Assembly (NCBI RefSeq): GCF_037963835.1
Contig: NZ_CP150145.1
Coordinates: forward strand, 3,596,001 to 3,660,000
From: Paenibacillus sp. FSL H8-0332
Lineage (GTDB): Bacteria; Bacillota; Bacilli; Paenibacillales; Paenibacillaceae
Length of the DNA stretch: 64,000 nucleotides
Reading direction: 5' to 3'
Within the stretch, counting starts at the first letter, position 1. Each line of letters opens with the position of its first letter. A program made the translations under genes and the position numbers. The notes beneath the pieces are model-generated. The model was given only the letters and a program-made list of their open reading frames with translations. It was not told the DNA's origin and ran no database searches. Shown here piece after piece: positions 12,742-33,094 of the stretch.

Positions 12742-13521
12742 ATGTTCACCCTGAAGCGGTGCGGTTCGAATGTAATTCATCCAGAGGGCATAACGATTGA
12801 CCGCCCGGAGGGCTCCGGCGATTACGTCTTTGTATTCTTTCGGAGCAGGATGGAGCTGAGGCTTCAGACGCGGAGCGTGTATGCTGAACCGAATACTTAC
12901 ATCATCTATAACAGAGACAGCCACTATTACTACAAGGATGCCGAGCTGCCGCTGGTGCATGACTGGTTCCATTTTGAGCTGGAGGGGGCAGATGCTTGGT
13001 TTGACCGCTTGAAGCTGCCGCTGGATACCTTAATGAAGGCCCATGACCCGCTCTATATCACCAGAAAAGTAAATGAGCTGCACTGGGAGAATCTGCAGAA
13101 CGGCAGCTTCCGCCATGAGATTATCGACTCCATTGTTCGTTGCCTGTTCATGAAGCTTAGCGATATGCGGCATCACGTAGAGGCCAGCCAGCCGGTCAGC
13201 AAATACTATGACGCGTTCCTGAATCTGAGAAATGAAGTGCTCAGCTCCCCCTCCACCTGGTATTCTGTCGAACAACTGGCGGAGCGGATGAACATGAGCC
13301 CGTCCTATTTTCAGCAGATCTATAAGCAGATCTTCGGCATTCCGGCCGTCAGCGACATCATCCTTAATCGTGTGGGCCATGCCTCCTATTTACTGAAGAA
13401 CACCACCTATACCGTCTGCCAGATCTCTGCGAGTTGCGGTTATGAGAACGATGTCCATTTCATGCGGCAGTTCAAGAAGTTCACCGGCCAAACGCCGAGT
13501 GAATATCGAGGGAAGGGCTGA
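12742..13521 (+). CDS. AraC-family transcriptional regulator
   Basis: About 259 residues. N-terminal cupin-like ligand pocket (about 1-140) and C-terminal double helix-turn-helix of AraC type (EQLAERMNMSPSYFQQIYKQ; CQISASCGYENDVHFMRQFKKFTGQTPSEYR). ATG 12742 is chosen because AAGGTGG lies eight bases upstream; earlier in-frame TTG and ATG codons lack a site. Divergent from the GH2 glycosidase gene across less than 100 bases, so it most likely senses a sugar and controls that gene. Confidence 0.88.
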   Translation: MFTLKRCGSNVIHPEGITIDRPEGSGDYVFVFFRSRMELRLQTRSVYAEPNTYIIYNRDSHYYYKDAELPLVHDWFHFELEGADAWFDRLKLPLDTLMKAHDPLYITRKVNELHWENLQNGSFRHEIIDSIVRCLFMKLSDMRHHVEASQPVSKYYDAFLNLRNEVLSSPSTWYSVEQLAERMNMSPSYFQQIYKQIFGIPAVSDIILNRVGHASYLLKNTTYTVCQISASCGYENDVHFMRQFKKFTGQTPSEYRGKG

Positions 13522-13604
13522 TGGCGAAGGAAGAGCGGATCGGGGTTATTGGCTTGGAGTTGTTATATAAGACGCACTAAAGAAATTAACAAAAAAAGCA
13601 AAAG

Positions 13605-13746
13605 AAGTGGAGGAGAATTTTGGAACTGTAGGAGCGGTAGCGTCCGCCTTTGTATTTGGATTTCTACCGCGAAAAGCGGTTCTAATCAGGAAATCCAAAT
13701 ACAACAGCGGCCGGAGGGCCAAATGTTCACCGCAACGACGACCATG
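13605..13746 (+). repeat. Dispersed modular repeat, long copy with internal hairpin
   Basis: This stretch shares two blocks with 33009-33094 (inverted there): TTTGGAACTGTAGGAGC and CCAAATGTTCACCGCA, plus GGCCGG between them. This copy has in addition a central module: arms TGTATTTGGATTTC (13651-13664) and GAAATCCAAATACA (13690-13703), a perfect 14-bp stem, with a second small stem ACCGC/GCGGT inside. It begins about 80 bases after the AraC-type gene in the same direction. No protein is encoded. It looks like an intergenic repeat or structured RNA element. Confidence 0.75.
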
Positions 13747-13783
13747 CTTAAAGTTATAATCTTAAGTGCATCTTTTTTTATAA

Positions 13784-32946: not shown

Positions 32947-33008
32947 CTTGGGTCACCTCGTATATTGTATGTATATAAGCTATAAGACACACTTAAGTTT
33001 CGAACTTG

Positions 33009-33094
33009 AAGCTTCGTCGGCACTGCGGTGAACATTTGGACTTCCGGCCGGTTGCTACTGCTCCTACAGTTCCAAATTTCCCCTCCGCTGCTTC
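33009..33094 (-). repeat. Dispersed modular repeat, short copy without the internal hairpin
   Basis: Inverted copy of the element at 13605-13746. On the minus strand it carries TTTGGAACTGTAGGAGC, then GTAGCAACCGGCCGGAAG, then CCAAATGTTCACCGCA. It lacks the central ~55-base stem-loop of the other copy. It begins directly at the stop codon of the gene at 33093-33722 and has the same direction as that gene, as the long copy does relative to the AraC-type gene. Confidence 0.75.

What the first reader, a model, noticed from the sequence alone, without database searches (positions are those of the whole stretch)
13605..13746. Modular intergenic repeat: long copy carries an extra nested hairpin
Seen: two blocks (TTTGGAACTGTAGGAGC, CCAAATGTTCACCGCA) shared with 33009-33094. 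Only this copy has a perfect 14-bp stem with a second stem nested inside, placed between the blocks. Both copies follow a gene in the same direction. This could be a mobile intergenic element with an optional cassette, or a 3'-UTR RNA structure.
Basis: seen in the sequence. Interest (0 to 1): 0.6.

Follow-up and report, generated by a model that had tools for sequence, protein, structure and literature searches.

The report
Paenibacillus mobile hairpin with swappable tip
The repeat is one of about a hundred copies per genome of a small mobile DNA element of Paenibacillus that carries a conserved RNA-like hairpin whose tip has been exchanged as a unit between species at the same chromosomal sites, a family not in Rfam and not found in the literature searched.

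Summary
Both window copies belong to a dispersed family: 107 covariance-model matches in this 7.5-Mb genome, and matches in all 36 same-genus relatives searched. The copy at 13566-13777 is a full-length ~212-bp element; 32981-33094 is a derivative that lost one end and the tip hairpin. Mobility is shown: orthologous sites in close relatives are empty or occupied, two clean empty sites show a duplicated TA (CTAG target), and the end repeats resemble those of IS630-family insertion sequences found in relatives but not in this genome. It is thus MITE-like, of IS630 (Tc1/mariner) type. The interior is a long hairpin with very strong covariation (36 of 42 pairs with double changes; 73 distinct tip stems among 172 copies) and far more G-U than A-C, so one strand's fold, probably RNA, is selected. 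Between species the tip and an optional 38-nt second hairpin are exchanged at fixed sites while the arms stay the same, or the reverse: mosaic evolution, probably gene conversion. All three copies of an IS110-family element sit at one position inside the repeat, with guide-like matches to that target. Function is inferred.

The parts
13566..13777 (+). Full-length type-A element (about 212 bp), 5' TIR to 3' TIR; preceded by TA at 13564-13565; right end degenerate (CTTTTTTTATA), so the exact right border and TSD are uncertain
   Evidence: TIR matches at genome 3609566-3609582 and 3609761-3609777; alignment with 11 other full-length copies
13566..13582 (+). 5' terminal inverted repeat TATAAGACGCACTAAAG
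   Evidence: exact match; resembles IS630 TIR TATAAGTTGAACTAAAG of L208
13606..13649 (+). left arm of the conserved core (AGTGGAGGAGAATTTTGGAACTGTAGGAGCGGTAGCGTCCGCCT)
   Evidence: core of model R1, genome 3609606-3609741
13650..13704 (+). tip module: 15-bp stem TTGTATTTGGATTTC/GAAATCCAAATACAA enclosing ACCGC/GCGGT; the unit exchanged between copies
13705..13741 (+). right arm of the conserved core (CAGCGGCCGGAGGGCCAAATGTTCACCGCAACGACGA)
13761..13777 (+). 3' terminal inverted repeat (CTTAAGTGCATCTTTTT, 3 mismatches to consensus)
32981..33094 (-). deletion derivative: 3' TIR and core arms kept, tip module and 5' end lost
   Evidence: genome 3629017-3629089 core match and TIR 3628981-3628997; sequence L018
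12706..13521 (+). upstream AraC-type regulator gene (flank, used as synteny anchor)

Best explanation
A family of non-autonomous, MITE-like elements with IS630-type ends has spread in Paenibacillus genomes and carries a structured hairpin that works on one strand, most likely as RNA within intergenic parts of transcripts. Shown: about 100 dispersed intergenic copies; insertion polymorphism; TA target duplication at CTAG at the two cleanest sites; end repeats shared with IS630-family elements of relatives; one long imperfect hairpin conserved by compensatory changes, including in copies without recognisable TIRs; in-place exchange of the tip module, of the 38-nt second hairpin and of outer arms between orthologous copies. 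Inferred: copies were moved in trans by an IS630 transposase that this genome no longer has; the exchanges are ectopic gene conversion between copies; the hairpin is kept because the transcript folds, probably as an mRNA processing/stability or insulating element (an RNase III-type substrate like neisserial Correia elements) that makes insertions tolerable or useful.
For: 107 model matches in own genome; 43 of 60 relatives incl. all 36 same-genus genomes. Only 2 of 106 hits overlap a predicted gene. Empty and occupied orthologous sites; GGCAAATAC-TA-GGCAG empty versus TA[element]TA occupied, and GAAC-TA-GGAC likewise; type-A site ATGC-TAA-TAGAC. IS630 (PF13358) copies with TIR TATATARNTTGAACTNA in relatives, none in own genome. 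Covariation 0.412 vs 0.163 shuffled and at most 0.108 slid; 485 double-changed cells. 73 distinct tip stems in 172 copies, G-T 134 vs A-C 2; overall G-U:A-C 248:20, also 65:8 in lagging-strand copies. Folding: 81 of 97 own copies z < -3 vs 3 of 60 random segments. Ortholog pairs with near-identical arms: my sum over the eleven closest pairs is arms 41/1119, tip module 75/605 substitutions.
Against: No transcription data were available, so RNA rather than single-stranded DNA is inferred. The orientation bias (75 of 106 on the leading strand) mixes gene and replication effects and does not separate the two. Type C and many diverged copies have no recognisable IS630-type ends, so IS630 mobility is shown only for types A and B. 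Gene conversion was deduced from patterns, not seen. The element's function is unknown.
Confidence: 0.72

Rival explanations
1. A purely selfish MITE: the hairpin is only a by-product of foldback ends, kept palindromic by DNA-level processes (cruciform repair or conversion), without RNA function.
For: TIRs, TA duplication and polymorphism; long near-palindromic architecture to the very ends; exchange between copies.
Against: A strand-symmetric DNA process would tolerate A-C as often as G-T on a given strand; observed 248:20, and 65:8 even in lagging-strand copies. Unpaired positions are A/G rich. Copies without TIRs keep the fold at orthologous sites whose flanks have diverged 20-50%.
Confidence: 0.2
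2. The fold acts as single-stranded DNA exposed on the lagging-strand template during replication (a protein-binding or recombination hairpin, in the manner of attC or REP/RAYT systems).
For: 75 of 106 copies oriented with replication; gaps neutral for gene direction 21 leading: 12 lagging; an IS110-family element uses the hairpin base as target.
Against: The neutral-gap bias is weak; tandem lagging genes 7 same: 5 opposite also allows gene-driven orientation. No dedicated partner gene was identified.
Confidence: 0.12
3. A dedicated trans-acting small RNA family (multicopy, own promoter), dispersed by transposition.
For: Universal centre conserved across arm types A, B, C; matches in other families of the order.
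Against: No conserved promoter or terminator is evident around the core; upstream flanks of type C are unrelated. Copies scattered in all gene contexts.
Confidence: 0.08

Closest known systems
RUP (repeat unit of pneumococcus)
   Same: About 100-bp intergenic repeat in high copy number with TIRs resembling an IS630-family element (PMC3049150)
   Different: RUP is described as a simple 107-bp repeat; the present element is about 212 bp with arm types, exchangeable tip and optional second hairpin, in Paenibacillus
BOX elements (boxA-boxB-boxC) of Streptococcus
   Same: Composite repeat with fixed outer modules and a variable inner module; predicted hairpin if transcribed (PMC3049150)
   Different: boxB varies in copy number as a tandem array; here one tip hairpin is replaced by another of different stem sequence, plus a presence/absence cassette; no BOX sequences were compared
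bcr1-bcr3 of the Bacillus cereus group
   Same: MITE-like intergenic repeats of a Bacilli lineage in similar copy number (bcr1 average 39, up to 130), often within UTRs or operon gaps (PMC6542083, PMC3446304)
   Different: bcr mobility is linked to a TTTAT motif; here TA at CTAG with IS630-type ends; different host family
Correia repeat enclosed elements (NEMIS) of Neisseria
   Same: MITE-like elements whose inverted-repeat transcript binds and can be cut by RNase III (PMC2649163); the proposed working model
   Different: Different lineage; RNase III processing has not been tested here
REP sequences targeted by IS621 (IS110 family, bridge RNA)
   Same: Dispersed intergenic hairpin used as target by an IS110-family element with guide-like non-coding RNA and CT core (PMC11208160)
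   Different: REPs are 20-40 bp and (from general knowledge) tied to RAYT transposases; this element is several times longer and has IS630-type ends

Membership tests
MITE of IS630 (Tc1/mariner) type | short, no transposase gene | tested here: met
   about 212 bp; only short chance ORFs
MITE of IS630 (Tc1/mariner) type | terminal inverted repeats | tested here: met
   types A and B; not seen in type C and many diverged copies
MITE of IS630 (Tc1/mariner) type | TA target duplication | tested here: met
   clean at type-B sites 832501 and 6664851, consistent at type-A site 608867; other sites too diverged to read
MITE of IS630 (Tc1/mariner) type | ends shared with an autonomous IS630 element | tested here: met
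   IS630 copies in G028, G084, G100, G094 carry TATATARNTTGAACTNA-like ends; type A differs in the middle of the TIR (about 13 of 17 letters alike)
MITE of IS630 (Tc1/mariner) type | mobilised in trans by the IS630 transposase | not testable with these tools
   needs a transposition assay; no PF13358 match in the own genome
bcr1 group | TTTAT-associated insertion | tested here: not met
   TA duplication instead
bcr1 group / RUP / BOX / Correia | sequence homology to the family | not tested
   no reference sequences of these families were aligned
any Rfam 15 family | match at gathering score | tested here: not met
   no match in window; only one miRNA match at E 0.013, far below its gathering score
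REP / RAYT | 20-40 bp palindrome with a RAYT gene in the genome | tested here: inconclusive
   length and ends differ; presence of a RAYT gene in the genome was not searched
IS110-family target (IS621-like) | IS110 transposase at one fixed position in the repeat with guide matches | tested here: met
   3 of 3 own copies and L358 at CGC-CT-TTGT; PF01548/PF02371; CGACCGCCT and GACAAAG in its 3' non-coding region

The most novel reading that the evidence does not exclude
The hairpin tip is exchanged by a dedicated mechanism rather than by ordinary gene conversion: the conserved base of the hairpin (CGC-CT-TTGT), which is also the insertion point of the 38-nt cassette and of a bridge-RNA-type IS110 element, acts as a site-specific recombination point, so that the family is a modular, reprogrammable structured RNA system spread over fixed chromosomal sites.
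Probability: 0.1. Interest if true: 0.85.

Novelty: new variant of a known kind. Interest (0 to 1): 0.58.

Why it matters
It adds to Paenibacillus, a large genus of soil, plant and insect bacteria, a structured repeat family that Rfam lacks and that occupies about a hundred intergenic sites per genome. It separates two processes that are usually confounded in such repeats: insertion (IS630-type, readable from empty sites) and later remodelling of the fold at fixed sites (module exchange). The dozens of stems with near-perfect pairing on one strand make a natural experiment for asking whether intergenic MITE hairpins act as RNA. The IS110-family element aimed at the hairpin base is a further candidate bridge-RNA system with a natural multicopy target.

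Tried and rejected
Rfam at gathering and permissive thresholds gave nothing credible. A strict 3'-UTR element was rejected on gene context. Replication-strand mutational skew as cause of the G-U excess was rejected because lagging-strand copies show it too. An own-genome IS630 helper was sought and not found; at three mismatches the type-A TIR pattern is no more frequent than its reversed control, so lone TIRs mean little, and I did not find an autonomous A-type element. A/B arm hybrids were not found in the own genome with the thresholds used but one occurs at the finding's own orthologous site in G115 (L232). A relation of the 38-nt cassette to the ends of the IS110 element was looked for by eye and not seen. 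Literature searches for a Paenibacillus family of this kind returned nothing relevant; subscription papers are not covered. One ortholog alignment (L143/L269) is an unoccupied or unrelated site and was not used; some empty sites (e.g. 2396442, 670739, 3083545) were too diverged to show the duplication.

Full report
Observation. The window is G000:C1:3596001-3660000 of a 7.54-Mb single-contig genome. The right-hand block occurs 31 times exactly in that genome, and a covariance model of the 136-nt core, R1, finds 107 matches. The would-refute condition of the finding (no other copies) is therefore excluded.

Anatomy. Twelve full-length copies align from end to end over about 212 bp: TA - TATAAGACGCACTAAAG (5' TIR) - left arm with GGAGGGGAAATTTGGAACTGTAGGAGCGGTAGCGNCCGCC - tip module - CAGCGGCCGGAAGTCCAAATGTTCACCGCA right arm - CTTAAGTGCGTCTTATA (3' TIR) - TA. 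The complete element can fold into one long imperfect hairpin. The copy at 13566-13777 is full length, with a degenerate right end; 32981-33094 (minus strand) has lost the 5' end and the tip. Copies fall into arm types: A (as here), B (TIR TATATAGATTGAACTT), C (arms GGACGGAACGATTGTGG/GGTCCGTTCGCGGAGCG, no evident TIR) and about 30 with private or diverged arms. All share the centre. Nine own copies seen carry an additional 38-nt hairpin, GAAAGCTTTCCGCAGGAAAGCTCGCTTCGGAAGCAT, inserted at CGCCT just before the tip stem.

Mobility. Using joined flanks of own elements as queries against close relatives, single uninterrupted matches mark empty sites and split matches with a gap of about 200-240 bp mark occupied ones. 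Several sites are polymorphic, e.g. 608867 is empty in G100, G112 and G115 and occupied in G113. Two type-B empty sites read GGCAAATAC-TA-GGCAG and GAAC-TA-GGAC where the own genome reads TA[element]TA; type-A site 608867 reads ATGC-TAA-TAGAC in one relative against TA[element]TA. The target duplication is thus TA, with CTAG at the two clean type-B sites. At site 1771775 the relative has GGCTATATAGATT, four letters more than the expected empty site, which could be an excision footprint; this is a single case. TA duplication is typical of the IS630 (Tc1/mariner) group, which from general knowledge favours CTAG. PF13358 transposases are absent from the own genome but present in seven of ten genomes searched, and several of those IS copies end in TATATARNTTGAACTNA-like repeats, matching type B almost letter for letter and type A at both ends of the TIR.

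Distribution. R1 matches 43 of 60 relatives, including all 36 of the same genus, and a few genomes of other families of the order. In a wider sample of the class, 27 of 299 genomes matched, all of the window's own family; the table does not show family members without a match.

Structure. On 93 own copies (alignment fitted to the model, which leans towards it), 96.7% of cells pair, 36 of 42 pairs have double changes, and the covariation score is 0.412 against 0.163 for shuffles and at most 0.108 for slid partners. An extraction anchored on conserved letters only, not on the structure, gives 172 copies with 73 distinct tip stems, nearly all paired at every position. Cells that depart from Watson-Crick are strongly G-U rather than A-C: 134:2 in the tip, 248:20 overall, 119:20 without pairs where G-U is the commonest, and 65:8 in copies on the lagging strand. 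Cells are not independent, but the direction argues that one strand's fold is selected. 81 of 97 own copies fold with z below -3 (mononucleotide shuffles, eight each, so rough) against 3 of 60 random window segments.

Behaviour at fixed sites. Local comparison of own loci with loci of other species found many orthologous pairs. The element often persists while flanks diverge by 20-50%, and each ortholog tested still folds into a long hairpin even where the arms differ (L324 is weak). Within such pairs the modules evolve independently: arms 5/102 but tip 16/55 different (1588849 vs L251), 6/101 vs 17/54 (404010 vs L327), 0/102 vs 8/55 plus a gained or lost 38-nt hairpin (608867 vs L281), and the opposite, tip 0/55 but right arm switched from type A to B at the finding's own site in G115 (L232). 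Over the eleven pairs with the most similar arms my sum is 41/1119 for arms and 75/605 for the tip. The 38-nt hairpin is present in one and absent in the other ortholog at about eleven sites, most cleanly L380 versus L381. Ectopic gene conversion between the many copies is the simplest account; a site-specific process at CGCC|TTTG is the more novel one.

Context. Of 106 own hits two overlap a predicted gene; 53 lie between two genes of the same direction, 18 in convergent and 15 in divergent gaps, 16 opposite to both neighbours; 75 are on the leading strand (gene calls by a simple hexamer score). Tandem leading genes give 46 same: 11 opposite, tandem lagging genes 7:5, and neutral gaps 21 leading: 12 lagging, so both gene and replication direction may matter and neither is decisive.

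A second system aimed at the repeat. Three copies of a 1,745-bp IS110-family element (PF01548, PF02371) in the own genome all sit at exactly CGC-CT-TTGT inside the repeat, and a related one in L358 does too. Its 3' non-coding region contains CGACCGCCT (identical to the left target up to the core CT) and, 18 letters on, GACAAAG (complement of the right target from the core), the arrangement described for bridge-RNA target loops (PMC11208160). It is the counterpart of IS621 in REP sequences.

Comparison with the known. By anatomy and ends it is a MITE-like element of IS630 type, in the company of RUP (IS630-Spn1-like TIRs) and of the modular BOX elements (PMC3049150), the bcr repeats of B. cereus (PMC6542083, PMC3446304) and Correia elements (PMC2649163). 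It differs in the exchangeable, hypervariable but paired tip, in the optional second hairpin and in host range. It matches no Rfam family, and the searched open literature gave no description from Paenibacillus.

What is shown and what is inferred. Shown: family, ends, TA duplication at the clean sites, insertion polymorphism, conserved fold with strand asymmetry, module exchange at fixed sites, IS110 targeting. Inferred: trans-mobilisation by an IS630 transposase, transcription and RNA-level function, gene conversion as mechanism, bridge-RNA nature of the guide matches.

Noticed in passing
L375, L376, L377 (G000:C1:2517300-2520200, 3738900-3742200, 6302400-6305300) and L358: IS110-family element inserted at one position (CGC-CT-TTGT) of the repeat in all three own copies, with bridge-RNA-like guides CGACCGCCT and GACAAAG in its 3' non-coding region.
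   Followed up: partly
own copies L001, L022, L030, L125, L134, L142, L143, L146, L153; relatives L231, L235, L236, L281, L378, L379, L381: Optional 38-nt hairpin cassette at the same CGCCT position as the IS110 insertion; gained or lost between orthologs; its origin is unknown.
   Followed up: partly
G276:C1:5421630-5422126 and G334:C1:6139140-6139458; L302, L306: Tandem clusters of two or three core matches spaced about 180-340 bp in other genera and species of the family.
   Followed up: no
left flank of own element at 2897813-2897950 (L011/L051): A different repeat of about 110 letters (TGTTCGCAAGCAGGCATATGGCCCGAATGTATG...) hits dozens of places, often in tandem, in G113 and G115.
   Followed up: no
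window 13521-13566 versus L231-L236: Relatives carry a few hundred extra bases, by eye an acetyltransferase-like reading frame, between the AraC-type gene and the element; this genome lacks them, so the left border here may involve a deletion.
   Followed up: no
L384 (G100:C1:6648613-6648835): Site 1771775 in G100 reads GGCTATATAGATT, four letters longer than the expected empty site: possible excision footprint.
   Followed up: no
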